Shown: positions 3,252 through 21,319 of the stretch, piece after piece
How positions within the stretch are numbered: the first letter of the stretch is position 1
Layout of the letters: each line of letters starts with the position of its first letter
From: Candidatus Gastranaerophilales bacterium
GTDB lineage: Bacteria; Cyanobacteriota; Vampirovibrionia; Gastranaerophilales; Gastranaerophilaceae
Length of the DNA: 35,471 nt
Assembly (NCBI GenBank): GCA_944325815.1
Contig: CALVBV010000009.1
Location: 1 to 35,471 of the forward strand
Direction: 5' to 3'
The notes under the pieces: generated by a model
Database searches by the model: none
Told to the model about the DNA's origin: nothing
The model's input: the letters and a program-made list of their open reading frames with translations, nothing else
Made by a program: the position numbers and the translations under genes

Positions 3252-4520
3252 ATGGAAAGATTTATCGGCCTCATTGGAATTGTTGTAATATTTTTAATAG
3301 TGTTTGCAATGTCAAACAACCGCAAGGCAATAAATTATAAAACTATAGGAATGGGCTTTTTACTCCAGATAATATTTGCGGTATTTATATTTAAAGTTCC
3401 GTTAGGCCAGAAAATGTTCTTAATGATAGGAATGTTTATTCAAAAAATTCTGGAATTTGCAACAGAGGGCGGTTTATTCGTTTTCGGCCCGTTATTAGAA
3501 AAAACAAGGCTTGCAGAATTATTCGGTGAGAGCGGAAGTATTTTTGCTGTTCAGCTTATTTGCACAAATATTTTTATGATGGTTCTGGTTAATATTTTGT
3601 ATTATTACGGAATCATGCAAAGGGTTGTTGCAGGTCTGGGCAAGGCTATGAATAAGTTTATGCATGTTTCCGGTGCGGAGGCGCTTTCTAATGTTGCAAG
3701 CTCTTTTGTGGGTCAGATTCTCGCACAAATTATGATTAAACCTTATTTAGAAAAGCTTACACGTTCGGAATTGTTAGCTTCAATGTCAGGCAGTATGGCA
3801 TGTATATCAGGCGCAATAATGCCGGTTTATATAGGAATGGGGATTCCGGCGCATTATATTTTGGCATCTTCTATTATGGCTGCGCCGGGTGCGCTAATTC
3901 TATCAAAAATTATTTACCCAGAAACCGGGGAACCGGAAACAAGAGACAATATAAGAATCTCGAGAAGGCGTACTTTTGCAAATGTTTTTGAGGCAATTTC
4001 CAATGGTGCTTCAGAAGGTATGAAAGTCGCAATCAATGTAACCGCCATGATTTTAGCTTTGGTTGCTCTTGTAGCATTCATAGACTGGGTGTTGGGCTTG
4101 GGCGGAATGTTTCTTTACAAATTCTGTCCGGGATGTTCTCATTTTGCATTTTTAAGCCATTTATCACTTAAGCTTATATTAGGGAAAATATTCGCAATAT
4201 TTGCTTTTATAATAGGTGTGCCAATTCACGACGCATCTACTGTTGGTGCTTTAATGGGAACTAAAATCGTGCTTAATGAAATGGTAGCTTATGTTGATTT
4301 AGCAAAGATAAAAGACTTGCTCGACCCAAAAAGTTTTATGCTTGCAAGTTTTGCGCTTTGCAGTTTCGGGAATTTCGGCTCTATTGCTATTCAAATAGGC
4401 GGAATAGGAGAACTTGCACCAAATCAGAAGAAAAATCTTGCAAGGCTGGGGTTGAGGGCTCTTATCTGCGGAACGCTGAGCTGTTATTTATCTGCTTCAA
4501 TTGTTGGAGTTTTGCTCTGA
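3252..4520 (+). CDS. Concentrative nucleoside transporter family (NupC/CNT) membrane protein
   Basis: CNT proteins are inner-membrane, ion-coupled nucleoside importers. The 422 residues contain a run of hydrophobic segments and the family blocks G-G-L-F-V-F-G (73-79), G-A-E-A-L-S-N-V-A-S-S-F-V-G-Q (141-155), L-T-R-S-E-L (169-174), N-E-M-V-A-Y (342-347) and G-N-F-G-S-I-A-I-Q-I-G-G-I-G (373-386). Residues matching the ribose-contacting Glu, Asn and Ser of the Vibrio cholerae CNT are kept (Glu343, Asn374, Ser377). The nucleobase-contacting Q-T-E-A-P motif reads Q-I-L-A-Q (155-159), so base recognition is probably changed and the substrate should not be assumed. The 3' end overlaps a convergent orphan by 24 bases. 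The phosphopentomutase gene deoB elsewhere in the window fits nucleoside salvage. Confidence 0.88.
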   Translation: MERFIGLIGIVVIFLIVFAMSNNRKAINYKTIGMGFLLQIIFAVFIFKVPLGQKMFLMIGMFIQKILEFATEGGLFVFGPLLEKTRLAELFGESGSIFAVQLICTNIFMMVLVNILYYYGIMQRVVAGLGKAMNKFMHVSGAEALSNVASSFVGQILAQIMIKPYLEKLTRSELLASMSGSMACISGAIMPVYIGMGIPAHYILASSIMAAPGALILSKIIYPETGEPETRDNIRISRRRTFANVFEAISNGASEGMKVAINVTAMILALVALVAFIDWVLGLGGMFLYKFCPGCSHFAFLSHLSLKLILGKIFAIFAFIIGVPIHDASTVGALMGTKIVLNEMVAYVDLAKIKDLLDPKSFMLASFALCSFGNFGSIAIQIGGIGELAPNQKKNLARLGLRALICGTLSCYLSASIVGVLL

Positions 4521-4781
4521 TATTGTTTCTTTTTCAAAAAGGAGATTTAACTCCATCATATTAGAAACACGTTCTGCGAGCAGGGTCATCATATTGATAT
4601 AGTTGTTACGCTCTTCACTTATTTTCTTTTTTACGATATCTGAGGCACCGTAATATTGACCGGAAAATTCTCGTTCCTGACAGGAATGAATCGTTAATTG
4701 TACTATGGAATCCGCTTTATACAGTTCATCAAAATTCGCCTGCTGATAATTAAGCAGTTTATATTTAAAGCTCTTCTTCAT
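4497..4781 (-). CDS. Small helical protein of unknown function (94 aa)
   Basis: I do not recognise this protein. It is predicted to be mostly helical, charged and soluble, with two or three long amphipathic helices (about residues 10-38 and 45-84) and a polar C-terminus ending in three Asn/Ser-rich residues. There is no signal peptide, no metal motif and only one cysteine. A strong ribosome-binding site (GGAGGT) sits 6 bases before the ATG, which supports it as a real gene although it overlaps the CNT transporter tail by 24 bases on the other strand. It follows the DUF262-like gene on the same strand at an 85-base distance, with a possible -10 (TATACT at 4822-4817) between them, so it may be transcribed separately. 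Confidence 0.65.
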   Translation of the reverse strand: MKKSFKYKLLNYQQANFDELYKADSIVQLTIHSCQEREFSGQYYGASDIVKKKISEERNNYINMMTLLAERVSNMMELNLLFEKETISEQNSNN

Positions 4782-4866: not shown

Positions 4867-5958
4867 TTATTTGCAGGCAATAAAAGCGTTTAAATATTTT
4901 ATAAGCTCATTAAATTCAACGTTATTTTCATGAATGTTTCTGTTTTTTAAATACTCGTCAATTGTTTTTAATATTTCAATGAAGGTTGATTCTGAAATGT
5001 TATTTTCGCAATAGTCATCATAAACATCCATTATGTAAGCATAAGTGTCCTCTCCGGAGTGTCTCTTTATTTCTATAAATGCTTTTTTTATTTCATCATT
5101 TTCAAAATTAACATTTAATATGTTATAGTATAACATTGCAGAGTGCGCAATTCTCCGCATTAAGATATCTTCCGGCATATATTGCATCATAGTTTCAAAA
5201 TAGTTAACAAAACTTTCGTATAATCGGTCTTCTTCAAATTTTTTGTAGTTAAACTTAGTAACGAAAAAGTCTTTTAGAAACCTTATGATTTCATATTCTT
5301 TTGGAAAGTAGCGGGTTTTTATTATTTCCCACTCTGATATAACACCATTTTCTTTTATAAAATCTTCTATTAATAGTATTTGATTTAATTTTCTTGAGGA
5401 GTTGAGTTTGTAGTACAGGTTGCGTTTAGAAACCTTATCTGTTTCAACAAGCGTTACTGTAACTTTTTGAAGCATGCGGAAAATGTTTGAAGCCTGAAGC
5501 TTTTCTTCTTTGATTTGTGACCAGAAGTTATGAAGAAGGATGAACATCGGAGTTTCTTTTTCTTTTCCGGATAACCGCTCTCCGTTTATAATTTTATTAT
5601 ATATTATTCCGTCTTTTTCGTTTAGCCTGAGTTTTGACTTAGAGCCGTGTATAAGATATTTTTTTCTTATAGTACTTATCGCTTTTTCATTTTGCTTGGT
5701 TGTTTTTTTGTAGCATTCGCATATTGCATGTAATAGCAGTGATAATGATACAATCCTGTTTAACCCGTCAACTATTGTATACTGGTCTGATGATTTTTGA
5801 TTAATAAAAATTATACCCAGGTCAATTTTTTGCGTAAATTGTTCATCTTCTGTCATTAAATCCAGAAAATTAACAAGTCTGCCACTGCACTTTGCGTAAT
5901 CTAAAGTGAATAAATCCCGGGCAATATTCAAGAAATCAAGTAAATTTACAACTTCCAT
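4867..5958 (-). CDS. Degenerate DUF262 (GmrS/ParB-Srx-like) protein without nuclease domain
   Basis: DUF262 proteins have a ParB/sulfiredoxin-like nucleotide-hydrolysing domain, usually in restriction or defence proteins such as GmrSD. Here I see the signature in divergent form: Y-T-I-V-D-G-L-N-R-I-V-S-L-S-L-L-L (residues 60-76) in place of D-G-Q-Q-R-L-T-T-L, and L-Y-Y-K-L-N-S-S-R-K-L-N near 181-192 where the family has an iFe-x-LN-s-x-G-x-x-L-s segment. The upstream P-x-Y-Q-R-x-Y-x-W motif is not recognisable, and no C-terminal HNH (DUF1524) domain is present in the 363 residues. It starts 2 bases after the winged-helix gene stop with a weak ribosome-binding site, so it is probably translationally coupled to it. 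The gene looks more AT-rich than neighbours (two hand-counted lines at 28-32% GC). Fold assignment is likely; function is unknown. Confidence 0.6.
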   Translation of the reverse strand: MEVVNLLDFLNIARDLFTLDYAKCSGRLVNFLDLMTEDEQFTQKIDLGIIFINQKSSDQYTIVDGLNRIVSLSLLLHAICECYKKTTKQNEKAISTIRKKYLIHGSKSKLRLNEKDGIIYNKIINGERLSGKEKETPMFILLHNFWSQIKEEKLQASNIFRMLQKVTVTLVETDKVSKRNLYYKLNSSRKLNQILLIEDFIKENGVISEWEIIKTRYFPKEYEIIRFLKDFFVTKFNYKKFEEDRLYESFVNYFETMMQYMPEDILMRRIAHSAMLYYNILNVNFENDEIKKAFIEIKRHSGEDTYAYIMDVYDDYCENNISESTFIEILKTIDEYLKNRNIHENNVEFNELIKYLNAFIACK

Positions 5959-5960
5959 TC

Positions 5961-6560
5961 TTACTCTGTTAAAACAAAACCGCCGGATGGAACATTTTTG
6001 AGTTTATCACCTTCTATTTTGGCGCGTAAGTTTTTAATATATTTGTAAACATAGTCTCTCGGTAAATCAAGAAGTTTGGCTAAATCTTTGGCATATACGG
6101 TTTTCCCGATATTGCTAAGCAGGTATTCAAACACAAGCTGCTCTCTGTCTGTCAGAGATTTTTTCAAGATTATTTGCGCCTCTTTTTTTGCAGAGGAAAC
6201 TTCTTCAACTTTTTCTATAACAGTTTTTGATTTAGATACTTTTTCCGGATTTGCAGGAACTTTAGCTGGTGGAGTTTCAACGGCTTTTGCCTGCAAATCT
6301 TTTTTTCTTATTGAAAACGGGGTATGAGATATTTTTCGTTCTCTTTCAAATGCCCGTCTGGCGATTGCAGAAAAACCGTCTTTCATATTTGAACTTGTAT
6401 TAGATGATGTACCTTTTGACATAACTATATCAACAACATCGTTTGTAGGCTTGCTCTCTTCTACGGTTTTTCCTAATCTCTGTGCAAATTCTTCCAGTGT
6501 AATTTTTTCCAAAGAACTTCTCCACTGTCTTATCTCTTCCTTCGTTAAATAATTAGGCAT
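5961..6560 (-). CDS. Winged-helix DNA-binding protein (response-regulator-type C-terminal domain, no receiver)
   Basis: The last about 65 residues (roughly 134-199) read like an OmpR/PhoB-type winged helix: L-T-D-R-E-Q-L-V-F-E-Y-L-L, then A-K-D-L-A-K-L-L, then V-Y-K-Y-I-K-N-L-R-A-K-I-E, ending in a short wing with G-G-F-V-L. There is no receiver domain. The N-terminus has a short helical segment with E-E-F-A-Q-R-L-G-K-T, and the middle (about 50-130) is a Lys/Pro/Ser-rich, probably disordered linker. The start is set at the ATG at 6560 (199 aa), since AGGAG lies 7 bases upstream; the TTG one codon earlier is too close. It is followed after 2 bases by the DUF262-like gene, so it may regulate or accompany that protein. 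Role is inferred only. Confidence 0.7.
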   Translation of the reverse strand: MPNYLTKEEIRQWRSSLEKITLEEFAQRLGKTVEESKPTNDVVDIVMSKGTSSNTSSNMKDGFSAIARRAFERERKISHTPFSIRKKDLQAKAVETPPAKVPANPEKVSKSKTVIEKVEEVSSAKKEAQIILKKSLTDREQLVFEYLLSNIGKTVYAKDLAKLLDLPRDYVYKYIKNLRAKIEGDKLKNVPSGGFVLTE

Positions 6561-6645
6561 CAAACATCTCCTATATTAACCTATGATAGTCTAACTTAAT
6601 TCCCCGTTACGGATTTATACTTATTAATTATAATGTACCACAAAA

Positions 6646-6694
6646 TTTGAAAAAATAATCAAAATATTTCACGATGTAAAGATTTTTTTTCAAA
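6646..6694 (-). terminator. AT-rich hairpin after the SPOR gene
   Basis: TTTGAAAAAA (6646-6655) pairs with TTTTTTCAAA (6685-6694), extended inward by AATC with GATT (6657-6660 with 6681-6684) around one bulged base. The loop is 20 bases. It starts 3 bases beyond the SPOR stop codon and the transcript continues with TTTTG. It may be a weak terminator or 3' end stabiliser. Confidence 0.4.
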
Positions 6695-7308: not shown

Positions 7309-7866
7309 TTACACTCCGCGAACTTTTGTTCCTGCTGATATTATATCTTCTATCTCTTCTGAATATCTGTTCATAACTTCTGTAGCAAATGCTTTTATGT
7401 CATTTATTCCGAGTTCACTTGTAAGCCCGCAGGCTTTGACAGGCGCGCCTTCTGATAAGATATTCAGACCTGTATGAATTAGTATTGAGGTTATTGATTT
7501 TGTTGCAATGGATACTGATAATTTTGCGCCGTTTATCATTAAGTCATCCCCTTTTCTTACAACAAAGATGCCTCTTTCTTCCAGCAGTTCTTTTATTATA
7601 CATATTAAAAGACGCTGGCGGAAAACGCCTTCTGTCAGGCTTATACCGAACTGTTCCGTAATAAAGCTCAGCATATATTTACTGTAAATTGGTTCATTGT
7701 TAATAACATCTTCAATATCAACCATTTCCGGAAGTTCAACCTTGCATTCTCCGCAAAATGCAACAATAGCATCTCCCTGAATTTTAAAATTTTTATAAAT
7801 CCAGTGCGGTGCAAGCTGTGAACCTATATACTTAATCTCATCTTCTATATATTTTGTTTTTATCAT
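7309..7866 (-). CDS. DUF366 family protein
   Basis: The 185 residues resemble DUF366, a small uncharacterised family found mostly in archaea and scattered bacteria and reported to have a fold related to biotin/lipoate ligases. Matching features are the start I-K-T-K-Y-I-E-D-E-I-K-Y-x-G-S-Q-L-A-P-H-W, the G-D-A-I-V-A-F-x-G-x-C block (31-41), a D-I-E-D block near 51-54, the F-R-Q-R-L-L block, and L-S-V-S-I-A-T-K-S-I-T-S-x-L-I-H-T-G-L-N (about 115-134). Its ATG overlaps the queC stop (ATGA at 7866-7863), so the two are translationally coupled. A task related to queuosine or another modified base or ligase chemistry is inference only. Confidence 0.7.
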   Translation of the reverse strand: MIKTKYIEDEIKYIGSQLAPHWIYKNFKIQGDAIVAFCGECKVELPEMVDIEDVINNEPIYSKYMLSFITEQFGISLTEGVFRQRLLICIIKELLEERGIFVVRKGDDLMINGAKLSVSIATKSITSILIHTGLNILSEGAPVKACGLTSELGINDIKAFATEVMNRYSEEIEDIISAGTKVRGV

Positions 7867-8528
7867 TTTTCAAATAAAATATCTAAATATCTTTCCCCTT
7901 GATTTGCAATAAGCGCTTTTTTTAGGTGCCTGCAGGATTCGCATACCCCGCAGTGTTTTTCTCCTCCGCCGTAACAACTCCTTACTAATTCAAGCGGTAC
8001 GGATTTTTCCATTGCAATTTTTACTATATCATTCTTGGTATAATTAATCAAGGGTGCTTCAACTTTCGGGTGTTTAAGGGTGGATAATTCAAATACCCGG
8101 CTGATTTCACTGCGAAAATTTTCCGTATTATCCGGAAAGGTTTCTCCTTCGTCTTTGTTTGCACCGAATATTATATAATCATAATTATAGGAATCTGCAA
8201 AACAGCCTGCTATGTTTAGAAAAAGACCGTTTCTGTTAGGAACCCAGACACTTTGGGCGCTTGTTAGGGTGCCTAAATTCTCGGACGGAATTTCTTTATC
8301 AGAGACAAGTGCAGTGCGGGTTATTTCTTTCAGCCAATCAAGATTAATAACTTTGTGTTTTATTTTATAAAATTTACAGATTTCACTGGAAGCTTTTATT
8401 TCCTGCTTTGCGGATTTTTGTCCGTAATCAAAGGTGAGCGCAAGATCTATCAAATATTTATCTTTAGATAGCCCAAGAGCGCATAGTGAATCTAAGCCTC
8501 CGGAGAGCAGTATTATTCCTCTATTCAT
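7863..8528 (-). CDS. queC: 7-cyano-7-deazaguanine (preQ0) synthase
   Basis: QueC uses ATP to convert 7-carboxy-7-deazaguanine and ammonia to preQ0, the precursor of queuosine in tRNA. The PP-loop S-G-G-L-D-S is at residues 9-14. The zinc site is complete: Cys185, Cys193, Cys196 and Cys199 in C-Y-G-G-G-E-K-H-C-G-V-C-E-S-C. The 221-residue length is normal. The start overlaps the HEAT-repeat gene by 8 bases and the stop overlaps DUF366 by 4. No queD, queE, queF, tgt or queA is in this window, so the rest of the pathway, or salvage, must be encoded elsewhere. Confidence 0.95.
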   Translation of the reverse strand: MNRGIILLSGGLDSLCALGLSKDKYLIDLALTFDYGQKSAKQEIKASSEICKFYKIKHKVINLDWLKEITRTALVSDKEIPSENLGTLTSAQSVWVPNRNGLFLNIAGCFADSYNYDYIIFGANKDEGETFPDNTENFRSEISRVFELSTLKHPKVEAPLINYTKNDIVKIAMEKSVPLELVRSCYGGGEKHCGVCESCRHLKKALIANQGERYLDILFEK

Positions 8529-10681: not shown

Positions 10682-11437
10682 ATGTCAAGAATTGAAAGTT
10701 TTAAACGGGCTTTAAGTGAAAAAAGAGCTGTAAAAATTATTGCAGGTATTGATAATTTTGATGCGGAAAGTGTAAAAAAAGTTGTAAAATCAGCTTCAAA
10801 TTCAGGTGCAAGTGCAATTGATATTTGCGCAAATCCTGATATTATTGCTATGGCAAGAAGTATGACCGATTTGCCTTTATTTGTATCGTCAATTGACCCG
10901 CAGGAATTGGCACATGCTGCAATTTTAGGGGCTGATGCAATTGAGTTGGGTAATTTTGATGCTCTTTATAAAAAAGGACTTACTTTCTCAGCTTCTAAAG
11001 TTCTAAGTTTAGTAAAAAGAACTCTGGAACTTCTTGACAGAGATGTTTTCTTCTGTGTTACTATTCCGGGAGAATTAGAAATTGCTGAGCAAATAGAACT
11101 TGCAAGAGAATTGGAAGATTTGGGTATTGACCTTATTCAAACAGAAGGACATTTTTCTAAAGAAATGCCTGAAAATGGTGTAAGAGGGCTTGTAGAAAGA
11201 GCAGAACTTACTCTTGCAAATACAATAGAGCTTACAAGAAATGTTGAGATACCTGTAATGACAGCTACAGGTATTAACCCGACTACTGCACCGCTTGCTT
11301 TCGCAGCGGGCGCTTCTGCTATCGGCTGTGGCTCTTGTGTAAATAAGCTTGATTCAGAGATTTCAATGATTGCTGTTTGCAGAAGCTTGGTTGAAATTGC
11401 TGAAAAGAATGCTCAATATACCGTTGAGTTGGTATAA
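10682..11437 (+). CDS. DUF561 / Ycf23 family TIM-barrel protein
   Basis: The 251 residues match the DUF561 (Ycf23) family along their whole length: K-I-I-A-G-I-D-N-F-D (18-27), A-I-D-I-C-A-N-P-D, the A-I-E-L-G-N-F-D-A-L-Y-K-K-G block (about 85-98), V-L-S-L-V-K-R-T-L-E-L-L, E-Q-I-E-L-A-R-E-L-E, D-L-I-Q-T-E-G and the C-terminal A-T-G-I-N-P-T-T-A-P-L-A-F-A-A-G-A-S-A-I-G-C-G-S. This points to a phosphate-binding TIM barrel, and the family is characteristic of cyanobacteria and red-lineage plastids. Its function is not known. It is transcribed alone, with its own promoter and a strong terminator. It is the single best taxonomic marker here. Confidence 0.88.
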   Translation: MSRIESFKRALSEKRAVKIIAGIDNFDAESVKKVVKSASNSGASAIDICANPDIIAMARSMTDLPLFVSSIDPQELAHAAILGADAIELGNFDALYKKGLTFSASKVLSLVKRTLELLDRDVFFCVTIPGELEIAEQIELARELEDLGIDLIQTEGHFSKEMPENGVRGLVERAELTLANTIELTRNVEIPVMTATGINPTTAPLAFAAGASAIGCGSCVNKLDSEISMIAVCRSLVEIAEKNAQYTVELV

Positions 11438-11459
11438 ATTAAATTGAAAAAAGATAAAG

Positions 11460-11490
11460 CAAGACCCTCCCCGGGGTCTTGTTTTATTTT
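11460..11490 (+). terminator. Rho-independent terminator after the Ycf23-like gene
   Basis: An 8-bp stem, CAAGACCC (11460-11467) with GGGTCTTG (11474-11481), is followed by TTTTATTTT. Confidence 0.9.
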
Positions 11491-11530
11491 GTTTTATATT
11501 GTGCAAAAACTGTTTTAAACGCTTCTTTTA

Positions 11531-11539
11531 TGTTATAAT
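11531..11539 (+). promoter_or_regulatory. Extended -10 promoter of rbfA-truB
   Basis: TGTTATAAT (TG at 11531-11532, TATAAT at 11534-11539) without a good -35 box. AAAGGAG precedes the rbfA ATG. Confidence 0.55.
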
Positions 11540-11560
11540 CCGGTATAAAAGGAGATAACA

Positions 11561-11908
11561 ATGTCTTTACGAAATGAACGTGTAAGAAAAGAATTAATGC
11601 GTGATATATCTGATATTATAAGAAAAGAAATCCGCGGACTTGAAGGAGTTGTTTCGGTTGTAGATGTAGAAGTTTCGCATGATAATTCTTTTGCAAAGGT
11701 AATATATAGTGTCTTTGGTACTCCCGAACAGGTGGAAAAAGATAGGGAAATTATTGAAAAAAATACAGGAAAAGTCCGTTATGAAGTCGGCAGGCGTATC
11801 CGTTTAAGAGTTACTCCGGAGATAAAATTTGTATATTCAGACGGTCTTGAGCAAGGTTCCAGAGTATTGGATTTGATTGATAAAATTTCTAAAGGTGAAA
11901 TAAAGTAA
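11561..11908 (+). CDS. rbfA: 30S ribosome-binding factor A
   Basis: RbfA binds immature 30S subunits and helps 16S rRNA 5'-end maturation. The 115-residue protein has the family layout: N-terminal R-V-x-x-E-L-M-R-D-I-S-D-I-I, then V-V-D-V-E-V-S-H-D-N-S-F-A-K-V-I-Y-S-V-F-G, and R-I-R-L-R-V-T-P-E-I-K-F-V-Y-S-D (about 80-95). It is followed without any gap by truB (TAA then ATG). In many bacteria the two sit after nusA-infB, which are not here; the gene has its own promoter instead. Confidence 0.94.
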   Translation: MSLRNERVRKELMRDISDIIRKEIRGLEGVVSVVDVEVSHDNSFAKVIYSVFGTPEQVEKDREIIEKNTGKVRYEVGRRIRLRVTPEIKFVYSDGLEQGSRVLDLIDKISKGEIK

Positions 11909-12760
11909 ATGTTCGGCTTTTTGAATATTTATAAGCCAAGAGGGATAACATCACATGATGTGGTCGCACAATTAAGGCGTATTACAAAAATTAAACAGAT
12001 AGGGCATACGGGTACGCTTGATCCTTTTGCCGAAGGTGTGCTTCCTGTGTGTATAGGAAAGTCTGCTCGTCTTATTGAGTATTTAAAAGACGATAAGGCT
12101 TATATAGGAACGGTTCAGCTGGGGGAATCTACAACGACTTATGATATTGAAGGAGATGTTGTAAATGTCTCTGACAAGGTGGTTTCTGCATACGAACTGG
12201 AGAAAGCTGTGGAAAGGTTTCAGGGGAAAATTCTGCAAACACCGCCGGTATACTCGGCGTTAAAAGTGAATGGGAAAAAGCTTTATGAATATGCAAGAAA
12301 TGGGGAAAGTATAGAGATAAAGCCAAGAGAAGTAGAAATAAAAGAGATTAGAATATTAAGTTTTGATGAAGAAATGAGGGTGGTAGAGCTTTATATAGCC
12401 TGTTCAAAAGGTACATATATCCGTTCGATAGCGAACGACTTGGGGGAAGCTCTCGGTACTTACGGGTTTCTTGCTAAGCTAATCAGAGTAAAAGCAGGTG
12501 ATTTTATTGCCGAAAGCAGTGTTAAGTTGGATGATATAAAAACTCTTGAGGATGCGAAATCACATTTGCTTAATCCGATAAACTATCTGGATTATCCGAA
12601 ATACGAGTTGAATGAGATTGAAAAAGAAAGAATTTCTCATGGCATGCCTTTAAATTCTGATTTAAAAGATGGTGTAATAATATTAACAAGTGAGAATAAT
12701 ATTTGCGCAGTGGGCAAAGCTGAAAATCATTGTATTCATTGTAATAAAGTGTTTATATAG
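11909..12760 (+). CDS. truB: tRNA pseudouridine-55 synthase
   Basis: TruB isomerises U55 in the T-loop of tRNAs. The catalytic aspartate is Asp38 in G-H-T-G-T-L-D-P-F-A-E-G. Other family blocks are N-I-Y-K-P-R-G-I-T-S-H-D (6-17), T-P-P-V-Y-S-A-L-K-V-N-G-K-K-L-Y-E-Y-A-R (about 110-129) and S-K-G-T-Y-I-R-S-I-A-N-D-L-G. The 283-residue length is normal, with a short PUA-like tail. It starts directly after the rbfA stop codon; the ribosome-binding site AAAGGTG is inside rbfA. Confidence 0.95.
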   Translation: MFGFLNIYKPRGITSHDVVAQLRRITKIKQIGHTGTLDPFAEGVLPVCIGKSARLIEYLKDDKAYIGTVQLGESTTTYDIEGDVVNVSDKVVSAYELEKAVERFQGKILQTPPVYSALKVNGKKLYEYARNGESIEIKPREVEIKEIRILSFDEEMRVVELYIACSKGTYIRSIANDLGEALGTYGFLAKLIRVKAGDFIAESSVKLDDIKTLEDAKSHLLNPINYLDYPKYELNEIEKERISHGMPLNSDLKDGVIILTSENNICAVGKAENHCIHCNKVFI

Positions 12761-12792
12761 TATTTAAAATTTCTCTCTCAGCCATTCAGCTA

Positions 12793-12821
12793 TTGCCGAG
12801 ACGGGCTAAATATGGTATAAT
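12793..12821 (+). promoter_or_regulatory. Strong promoter of the S1-domain gene
   Basis: TTGCCG (12793-12798), 17 bases, TATAAT (12816-12821), with an extended TGG before the -10. Confidence 0.7.
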
Positions 12822-12854
12822 TTACCCGTGTTTATTTGAAAAAGGAGAATGCAA

Positions 12855-13928
12855 ATGGTAGAAAAGTGTTCGGATGGTGATTTTGAAGCTCTTCTGGAAA
12901 AGTATGATTACAAATTCAAACGCGGTGATATTGTAAAAGGTGTTGTCTGCGGATATGAATCGGACGGTGTTGTTGTAGATATCGGTTCAAAAAGTACTGC
13001 TTTTGTTCCGCGATATGAAATTTCTGCTGACAAAAAGGCAAATGCAGAGGATGTGCTGGAATTAAATACAGAGTACGAGTTTTTGATAACTCAGGATAGT
13101 GATGAGAATGGAAAATTTACACTTTCTTATAAGAAAGTACATTTGGCACACACCTGGGAAGAATTGGAAAAAGTTAAGGAAGCTGATGAAACTATAGCAG
13201 TAGTTGTCTCTCAAATAGTAAGAGGCGGGCTGGTTGTTGATGTTTCGGGTGTTCAGGGCTTTATTCCTCAAGGTCAGCTGTGTGCAAGGGAAACTATTTG
13301 CAACCCGGGCGATAAGATAGAAGTTAAAATTCTTACTCTTGATAAAGCTCAGAATAATCTGATTCTTTCAAATAAAAAGGTTTATGAAACCAATATGGCA
13401 GAAACCAGAAAAAATGTTTTTGCGCAGGTTGAAGTCGGTCAGATTGTTAAAGGTGAAGTCGTAAGAATTACGGATTTCGGCGCATTTGTTAATGTCGGAG
13501 GGGTAGATTGTCTGCTTCCGTTGTCGCAGATTTCTTGGAAATGGGTTGAACATCCTACAGATTTGTTAAAAGTAGGTCAAGAAATTAATGTTGAAATTAT
13601 TGATATTGACAGAGATAAGCAGAGAATAAGCCTAAGTCTTAAAAATACTGAGCCTGATCCGTGGATTCAAGCAGAGGCTGAACTTAAAGAAGGAGATATT
13701 AAAGAGGGTATAATAACAAGAATAAAGCCGTTTGGCGCTTTTGTGGAAGTTCTTCCGGGCGTTGAGGCCTTATTCCCGCAGTCGGCTTTAGCAGAGTATC
13801 AAAATCAATACAACTGTATTTTAAAAGCAGGTGATAAGATTAATACAAAGATAATTAAGTTTAATCCGAAAGATAAACGAATTTCTTTGGGGCTTCCTAC
13901 AGAGGATACTGCAGTTGCTGCAGAATAG
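12855..13928 (+). CDS. rpsA: Small-subunit ribosomal protein S1 / S1 RNA-binding domain protein
   Basis: Four S1-type RNA-binding domains in tandem are visible, beginning around residues 22, 107, 195 and 280 (for example G-D-I-V-K-G-V-V, G-Q-I-V-K-G-E-V-V-R-I-T-D-F-G-A-F-V-N-V-G-G, and I-K-E-G-I-I-T-R-I-K-P-F-G-A-F-V-E-V). A short four-domain S1 resembles the cyanobacterial form rather than the six-domain E. coli protein. It likely helps mRNA loading on the 30S subunit. The start is set at ATG 12855 (357 aa) because AAAGGAG at 12841-12847 is 7 bases upstream; the ATG at 12849 lies only one base from it. The 3' end overlaps convergent maf by 32 bases. A second general S1 paralogue elsewhere cannot be excluded. 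Confidence 0.82.
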   Translation: MVEKCSDGDFEALLEKYDYKFKRGDIVKGVVCGYESDGVVVDIGSKSTAFVPRYEISADKKANAEDVLELNTEYEFLITQDSDENGKFTLSYKKVHLAHTWEELEKVKEADETIAVVVSQIVRGGLVVDVSGVQGFIPQGQLCARETICNPGDKIEVKILTLDKAQNNLILSNKKVYETNMAETRKNVFAQVEVGQIVKGEVVRITDFGAFVNVGGVDCLLPLSQISWKWVEHPTDLLKVGQEINVEIIDIDRDKQRISLSLKNTEPDPWIQAEAELKEGDIKEGIITRIKPFGAFVEVLPGVEALFPQSALAEYQNQYNCILKAGDKINTKIIKFNPKDKRISLGLPTEDTAVAAE

Positions 13929-20245: not shown

Positions 20246-21319
20246 ATGGAAAAAGAAATGGTTATCGGTATTCCGAGAGGAATGTCATTCTACAGCAACT
20301 ATCCCTTCTGGTACGGTTTTTTTACAAGTTTAGGAATAAAAATTGTATTGTCTGATCCTACAACAAAACAGACTATGTCAGAAGGCTCTGCTCTTGTTGT
20401 GACGGAGACTTGCCTGCCAATAAAAATTTATCTGGGGCATATTCTTAATTTGATTACAAAAGGAGTAAAGAACATTTTTGTTCCCTCATTGCAATCTATT
20501 GCGCCAAAAATTTATAATTGCTCTAAAATAAGAGGACTTCCGGATTTGGTGAGAAACGTTATTAAAGCTGATATTAATATAATTGAGCCTACGCTTGATA
20601 AGTCGGCTAAACATCAGGGATTGTATGAATTTCTGGAAGACGCTGTAAAACCTTTCGGGATTACAAATATTGATGATATAAAAAAAGCTTCAAAGCAGGG
20701 CTGGAAAGTTTATAATAATTTCCTTGTAATGATGCGCTCAGGTATGAGCTATAAAAAAGCTATTAATTATGCTCTTCAGGGAAAAGTCTTTATTGAAAAC
20801 CCTGCAAACTCTGCACCAATTAATGTTGCATTAGTTTCGCACGGTTATAATATTTATGACGAGCGGGCTTCTATGAAGATTTTTGATAAGTTAGAAAAAA
20901 TGGATGTAAAAGTATTTACATCTCTTCAGCTTACAGACGAGCAGATGGAAGAAGGTATTGCATCTCTCGGGCAAAAACGCTATTGGGCTAATGAGTATGA
21001 AATGACCGGTACAGCAGGTCATTACCTCAAGGATAATAAGATTGACGGAATTATCACTCTTAACGCTTTCGGTTGCGGCCCGGATTCTTTGATGATAGAA
21101 AGAATTACAAGAAAAGCAAAAGAAGCTAATAAGCCGATTTTATCGTTAACGATTGACGAACACACCGGTGAAGCCGGATTTATCACACGGCTGGAAGCGT
21201 TTATTGATATGCTTTACCGCAAGAAACGCTCTAAGATTATTAATAAAATTACAATGCCTGAGTACGATTATGTTCCTCAGACAAATATCTGTGATACTTT
21301 GTTTGCAGAGAAGAAATAA
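20246..21319 (+). CDS. DUF2229 / acyl-CoA dehydratase activase-related protein
   Basis: The 357 residues match the DUF2229 group that is related to 2-hydroxyacyl-CoA dehydratase and its activator: I-G-I-P-R-G-M-S-F-Y at the start, T-E-T-C-L-P-I-K (about 53-60), V-P-S-L-Q-S, and the C-terminal F-G-C-G-P-D-S-L-M and L-T-I-D-E-H-T-G-E-A-G-F-I-T-R-L-E-A-F. Cysteines in T-E-T-C, Y-N-C and F-G-C-G probably bind an iron-sulfur cluster, as in relatives. The BadF/BcrA ATPase domain that is often fused to it is absent. It is followed after 3 bases by a MacB-type permease. Substrate is unknown; such proteins are typical of anaerobes. Confidence 0.82.
   Translation: MEKEMVIGIPRGMSFYSNYPFWYGFFTSLGIKIVLSDPTTKQTMSEGSALVVTETCLPIKIYLGHILNLITKGVKNIFVPSLQSIAPKIYNCSKIRGLPDLVRNVIKADINIIEPTLDKSAKHQGLYEFLEDAVKPFGITNIDDIKKASKQGWKVYNNFLVMMRSGMSYKKAINYALQGKVFIENPANSAPINVALVSHGYNIYDERASMKIFDKLEKMDVKVFTSLQLTDEQMEEGIASLGQKRYWANEYEMTGTAGHYLKDNKIDGIITLNAFGCGPDSLMIERITRKAKEANKPILSLTIDEHTGEAGFITRLEAFIDMLYRKKRSKIINKITMPEYDYVPQTNICDTLFAEKK

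What the first reader, a model, noticed from the sequence alone, without database searches (positions are those of the whole stretch)
4867..6560. Winged-helix protein coupled to a degenerate, nuclease-less DUF262 protein
Two genes 2 bases apart on the minus strand form an isolated pair. The first is a receiver-less OmpR-type winged helix; the second has a DUF262-like fold in which D-G-Q-Q-R has become D-G-L-N-R, the Y-Q-R motif is gone, and no HNH domain follows. DUF262 proteins usually belong to restriction or defence systems, and the gene is visibly more AT-rich than its neighbours. The pair could be an undescribed regulator-effector or defence unit, or a domesticated, nuclease-free derivative. 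A helical 94-aa gene follows and might be part of it.
Basis: partly seen in the sequence, partly recalled or inferred. Interest (0 to 1): 0.62.

Follow-up and report, generated by a model that had tools for sequence, protein, structure and literature searches.

The report
Tamed restriction-type protein beside a regulator
In a group of gut bacteria related to cyanobacteria, a protein descended from an anti-phage restriction enzyme has lost its DNA-cutting part and part of its trigger site and is now a fixed core gene paired with a DNA-binding regulator, which suggests, but does not prove, that a defence protein was turned into a gene-control switch.

Summary
The pair is real: a 199-aa winged-helix protein (WH, 5961-6560 -) and a 363-aa DUF262/GmrSD_N-like protein (4867-5958 -), 2 nt apart, in a Gastranaerophilales MAG. 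The DUF262 fold is confirmed (AF2 pLDDT 90.7; Foldseek to DndI, E 7e-7). No HNH follows and the Q-R sensor motif is gone, but D64, G65 and R68 of D-G-x-x-R are invariant in 50 genus members; the equivalent Arg is essential for GTPase in SspE. The pair is adjacent in 52/52 named loci (gap -1 to 5 nt); 48 of 49 sampled genus genomes have the DUF262 gene, and all 22 full-length homologs in other genera of the family are also beside WH. It is under purifying selection, was not found on phages or plasmids, and has normal third-position GC. The order shows a reductive series: canonical HNH-less DUF262 (unlinked), the degenerate WH-linked form, and C-terminal-half-only proteins. WH is an order-wide core gene, often without DUF262, under a deeply conserved promoter element. 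Most likely this is a domesticated NTP-binding ParB/Srx switch acting on WH (coupling inferred). Defence is unlikely. The 94-aa gene belongs with the NupC-type transporter. New variant of a known kind.

The parts
5961..6560 (-). WH: 199-aa DNA-binding protein with a near-invariant N-terminal segment, a variable linker and a C-terminal winged helix
6411..6560 (-). WH N-terminal segment (YLTKEEIRQWRSSLEKITLEEFAARLGK...), near-invariant over the order, function unknown
5964..6155 (-). WH C-terminal winged-helix domain (residues 136-199)
4867..5958 (-). DUF262/GmrSD_N-like 363-aa protein without HNH
5755..5769 (-). D-G-L-N-R (residues 64-68), remnant of the D-G-Q-Q-R nucleotide-pocket motif; D, G, R invariant in the genus
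5707..5736 (-). LLHAICECYK (residues 75-84), hyperconserved helix special to the WH-linked group; candidate partner surface (inference)
6660..6681 (-). Conserved upstream element CTTTACATCGTGAAATATTTTG; candidate WH operator (inference)
6627..6632 (-). TATAAT, probable -10 of the WH-DUF262 operon, inside a second conserved block
   Evidence: sequence, conservation

Best explanation
The locus is a two-gene operon of the core genome of one Gastranaerophilales genus. WH is an old, order-specific DNA-binding protein, probably a regulator that controls its own promoter through the conserved element at 6660-6681. Its operon partner is a domesticated DUF262 protein. A restriction-type DUF262+HNH ancestor lost its HNH before the families of the order split. 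In one branch of the family the remnant came under the WH promoter, lost the Q-R sensor motif and the Gln pair of D-G-Q-Q-R, and kept the Asp and Arg of the NTP pocket and a helical body. It most likely acts as an NTP-binding, perhaps weakly hydrolysing, ParB/Srx-type switch that binds WH and changes its DNA binding: the DUF262 'recognise-hydrolyse-activate' logic with a regulator in place of a nuclease as output. Shown by computation: operon layout, conservation, fold, motif state, absence of HNH, largely vertical inheritance, reductive series, conserved promoter. Inferred: NTP binding, contact with WH, autoregulation, regulatory output.
For: Adjacency in 52/52 named loci with gap -1 to 5 nt, 48/49 genus genomes with the gene, and 22/22 full-length homologs in other genera beside WH despite different neighbours. 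DUF262 fold: pLDDT 90.7, DndI E 6.7e-7. D64/G65/R68 invariant while 66-67 vary; the equivalent Arg is needed for GTPase in two SspE homologs (PMC13251355). Hyperconserved helix 75-84. Purifying selection, dN/dS about 0.18. Same breakpoint near position 358 of a 543-position DUF262 model in f7, linked and C-only proteins. One gain and two losses on the WH tree. Family-wide promoter element upstream of WH, only one close copy in the genome. Precedent: DndB, a D-G-Q-H-R ParB-like transcriptional repressor (PMC4507180; PMC12704722).
Against: No direct evidence of contact between the proteins. WH is kept in many genera without DUF262 and shows no DUF262-specific segment. Distance correlation DUF262-WH (0.56) is not above that with neighbours (SPOR 0.78, QueC 0.69). 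One linked genus has E-G-I-Q-K, so the pocket residues are not universal. No regulon found beyond the self promoter.
Confidence: 0.45

Rival explanations
1. The DUF262 remnant is co-transcribed with WH only to borrow its promoter and works independently, for example as a pseudo-enzyme scaffold or a nucleotide/DNA sensor in another process. The separately kept C-terminal domain in sister genera would do a similar job without WH.
For: C-terminal-half-only homologs persist away from WH; WH persists without DUF262; no special rate correlation.
Against: All full-length homologs in the family are beside WH although the other neighbours change, and a helix special to the linked group is hyperconserved.
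Confidence: 0.3
2. The pair is still a defence unit: DUF262 senses phage DNA or nucleotides and WH or an unlinked nuclease is the output.
For: DUF262 without HNH occurs in the defence systems Menshen, Dazbog and PD-T4-2 (PMC10952713); best profile matches are PADLOC models.
Against: Core gene at a fixed housekeeping locus; no match in phage or viral collections and only one distant archaeal plasmid hit; no nuclease gene beside it; sensor motif lost; the genome has a separate canonical DUF262/HNH-like gene pair on contig 53.
Confidence: 0.1
3. The DUF262 gene is a decaying relic without function.
For: Progressive motif and domain loss over the order and two complete losses.
Against: Open frames in nearly all of about 50 species of the genus, dN/dS about 0.18, invariant D/G/R and a hyperconserved helix.
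Confidence: 0.05

Closest known systems
GmrSD / BrxU / SspE / DndI (DUF262 + DUF1524/HNH restriction effectors)
   Same: DUF262 ParB/Srx fold with helical body; Asp and Arg of the pocket motif kept
   Different: No HNH; D-G-Q-Q-R changed to D-G-x-x-R; Q-R sensor motif lost; core gene in an operon with a winged-helix protein
HNH-less DUF262 proteins of Menshen, Dazbog, PD-T4-2 and single-domain GmrS
   Same: DUF262 without DUF1524 (PMC10952713, PMC4619093)
   Different: Those are parts of defence systems or pair with nucleases and, as GmrSD family members in general, keep D-G-Q-Q-R in nearly all sequences; here the motif is degenerate, the gene is fixed and the partner is a DNA-binding protein
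DndB (D-G-Q-H-R protein, ParB-like transcriptional repressor)
   Same: Related fold family used for transcriptional control, autoregulating its operon (PMC4507180, PMC12704722)
   Different: DndB binds DNA itself and serves the dnd operon; here a separate WH protein supplies the DNA-binding domain and no dnd genes are adjacent
OmpR/PhoB response regulators
   Same: Shape of the WH C-terminal domain; weak profile match to 1kgs, E 0.036
   Different: No receiver domain; an N-terminal segment found only in Gastranaerophilales in the genomes sampled

Membership tests
DUF262 / GmrSD_N (PF03235) | Profile match above the curated cut-off | tested here: inconclusive
   Window protein 30.6 vs 33.2 bits; linked relatives in g35, g44, g46, g50 reach 33.2-45.4, one g31 member has no match
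DUF262 / GmrSD_N (PF03235) | DUF262 fold | tested here: met
   AF2 pLDDT 90.7, Foldseek DndI E 6.7e-7, probability 1.00, TM 0.48-0.55
DUF262 / GmrSD_N (PF03235) | D-G-Q-Q-R motif | tested here: not met
   D-G-[LVF]-[NSGR]-R in 50 genus members
GmrSD/SspE/BrxU restriction effectors | C-terminal DUF1524/HNH nuclease | tested here: not met
   Protein ends after the helical body; the only GmrSD_C match in the genome is on contig 53, slightly under the cut-off
GmrSD/SspE/BrxU restriction effectors | NTP hydrolysis via the pocket Arg | not testable with these tools
   Arg conserved; activity needs an assay
Anti-phage defence system | Patchy or mobile distribution, defence neighbourhood | tested here: not met
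   48/49 genus genomes, fixed locus, no phage or viral hits, one distant plasmid hit
OmpR/PhoB response regulators | Receiver domain | tested here: not met
   Absent
OmpR/PhoB response regulators | OmpR-type winged-helix DNA-binding domain | tested here: inconclusive
   Trans_reg_C 18.5 vs 26.2 bits; best Foldseek hits include GlnR and PhoP, E 7e-3 to 9e-3

The most novel reading that the evidence does not exclude
A new two-protein NTP-responsive transcription switch: a ParB/Srx-fold protein recruited from restriction effectors (DUF262) has replaced its nuclease output by control of a winged-helix regulator and is fixed in the core genome of a bacterial genus, while the helical half of the same ancestor is kept alone in sister genera.
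Probability: 0.35. Interest if true: 0.7.

Novelty: new variant of a known kind. Interest (0 to 1): 0.5.

Why it matters
DUF262 is known as the sensing and NTP-hydrolysing half of restriction effectors. Here stages of its taming can be compared in related genomes of one order: nuclease lost first, then the sensor motif, and in another branch the whole NTPase half. That makes it testable which part of the fold is useful without a nuclease. It also gives a first handle on a near-universal, order-specific DNA-binding protein of the largely uncultured gut lineage Gastranaerophilales. The cellular role remains unknown.

Tried and rejected
Foreign origin from AT-richness: rejected, GC3 normal. 94-aa gene as third part: rejected, it stays with the transporter gene and evolves fast (dN/dS 0.46). 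Mobile or phage origin: no viral or phage relatives, one distant DUF262 hit on an archaeal plasmid. A regulon from the promoter element: the own genome gives only the self site at 0 mismatches, and relaxed counts are near the reversed-pattern control. A WH segment that appears only with DUF262: the middle helix (IAERAFERERQ) is kept where DUF262 was lost, so no partner-specific signature was found. Mirror-tree: DUF262-WH distance correlation 0.56 is no higher than DUF262-SPOR 0.78 or DUF262-QueC 0.69, so no support for specific co-evolution. Sequence search of PDB with the DUF262 profile: no hits. Paper searches for DUF262 with winged helix, transcription or domestication showed no report of such a pair in their lists.

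Full report
WHAT IS THERE. On the minus strand, WH (5961-6560, 199 aa from ATG 6560, preceded by GGAG) is followed after 2 nt by a 363-aa gene (4867-5958). The 363-aa protein matches GmrSD_N/DUF262 at E 4.7e-7, slightly below Pfam's cut-off, and PADLOC DUF262-type models at up to E 9.8e-16. An AF2 model from 48 related sequences has mean pLDDT 90.7. The only significant matches among solved structures are two chains of DndI, a defence effector (E 6.7e-7, TM 0.48-0.55). WH ends in a winged helix whose best structural matches are GlnR, VanR and PhoP (weak E-values); it has no receiver domain.

SOURCE AND CONSERVATION. Related loci are named Candidatus Gastranaerophilales / Melainabacteria MAGs. 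In that set the pair is present and adjacent in 52 of 52 loci, with gaps of -1, 1, 2, 3 or 5 nt. In a 383-genome sample of the order, 48 of 49 genomes of the window's genus have the DUF262 gene. Its place is mostly fixed in a block HEAT-QueC-DUF366-SPOR-WH-DUF262-94aa-NupC. In 22 genomes of seven further genera of the family (g31, g35, g44, g46, g50, g52, g53) the full-length gene is again next to WH although surrounding genes differ. One genus genome, G006 (94% complete), lacks both genes.

STATE OF THE DUF262 PROTEIN. Across 50 genus members D64, G65 and R68 are invariant while residues 66-67 vary. In other linked genera the motif reads D-G-V-S-R, D-G-L-K-R, D-G-K-R-R, D-G-L-Q-R and once E-G-I-Q-K. 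The N-terminal I-P-x-x-Q-R motif is absent throughout the linked group. In SspE the Arg of D-G-Q-Q-R is essential for GTP hydrolysis in two homologs, and a Tyr (Y63 in E. coli, Y30 in Streptomyces) senses phosphorothioate DNA (PMC13251355). The window protein thus keeps the pocket Arg but apparently not the sensor side (the Tyr position was not aligned here). A helix after the motif (HAICECYK) is nearly invariant in the genus and differs from canonical DUF262; it is a candidate contact surface (inference). dN/dS is about 0.18, as for QueC (only 9 unsaturated pairs).

REDUCTIVE SERIES. Families f5-f7 of the same order carry HNH-less DUF262 proteins (377-426 aa, mostly with I-P-x-x-Q-R and D-G-Q-Q-R) not next to WH. 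Against one 543-position DUF262 model, an f7 protein covers 2-358, linked forms 62-361 and 63-358, and a C-only protein 191-358. The C-only group (183-240 aa, in genera g30, g32, g33, g34, g39, g41, g42, g48) is the helical half alone, not next to WH, in other operons such as before obgE. The shared end near 358 suggests that the nuclease part was lost once, early (inference). The C-terminal-domain tree is compatible with three groups; deep branches are weak and monophyly is only not rejected. On the WH tree the linkage can be read as one gain and two losses. A short tail motif (TIN[DSE]) is shared by f7, two linked genera and several C-only proteins, which supports common descent.

WH IS OLDER THAN THE PAIR. 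WH occurs in 366 of 383 order genomes (299 of 306 good ones); in a phylum sample all 130 genomes with a match belong to the order. It sits beside many different genes and keeps its architecture where DUF262 is absent. About 85-110 bp before its start an element, roughly TTTAC-N5-GAAA-[CT]-ATTTTG, is kept in most genera of the family whatever the neighbour, followed by a TTTATGnTA block. In the window's genome the only close match is this promoter. This fits an autoregulatory site (inference).

HOW IT MOST LIKELY WORKS. DUF262 joined the WH operon and now acts as a nuclease-free NTP-binding switch on WH. Operon layout, conservation, fold and order of events rest on computation; nucleotide binding, complex formation and regulation are inferred. 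The main caution: no result shows contact between the proteins, the distance correlation is no better than with neighbours, and WH manages without DUF262. An independent function under a borrowed promoter is therefore a serious rival. Defence is unlikely: fixed core gene, no phage or viral copies, no nuclease, and a separate canonical DUF262/HNH-like pair in the same genome.

COMPARISON. It is not a member of GmrSD/SspE/BrxU (no HNH, motif changed). It belongs to the DUF262 fold family as a degenerate branch. HNH-less DUF262 proteins are known in defence (PMC10952713), and a ParB-like D-G-Q-H-R protein, DndB, is a transcriptional repressor (PMC4507180, PMC12704722). New here are the coupling to a core winged-helix protein, core-genome fixation and the graded erosion within one order.

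Noticed in passing
L099 3789-4415; L103 3673-4224; L104 3858-4415; also L095, L096, L098, L100-L102: Stand-alone 183-240-aa proteins equal to the C-terminal helical half of DUF262, without a Pfam family above cut-off where scanned, directly before obgE in genera g33 and g34 and in other operons elsewhere.
   Followed up: partly
L083 5197-6870; L086 5653-7310; L088 3887-5579: In family f6 the canonical HNH-less DUF262 gene is directly followed by a small deoxynucleotide-monophosphate-kinase-like gene in three genomes.
   Followed up: no
window 4497-4781 (-) and 3252-4520 (+): 94-aa fast-evolving gene (dN/dS 0.46) overlapping tail-to-tail with a NupC-type transporter gene and staying with it where the neighbourhood is broken.
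   Followed up: partly
G000 contig 53, about 10947-13308 (L115, L116): Two adjacent canonical DUF262 genes, one with an HNH-like stretch just below the Pfam cut-off: the likely true DUF262 defence locus of this genome.
   Followed up: no
L133, L134, L135, L136, L137, L141: In other genera WH is directly followed by a homolog of window ORF 20246-21319 instead of DUF262, so WH repeatedly heads two-gene operons with different partners.
   Followed up: no
window 7309-8528 (-): QueC next to a DUF366 gene, conserved together over the genus; DUF366 may belong to queuosine-type metabolism (guess).
   Followed up: no
C-terminal tails of L084, L085, L095, L096, L098, L101, L108, L109 proteins: Short tail motif TIN[DSE] after a variable linker shared by DUF262 relatives of all three types, possibly a peptide that binds a partner; missing in the window's genus.
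   Followed up: no
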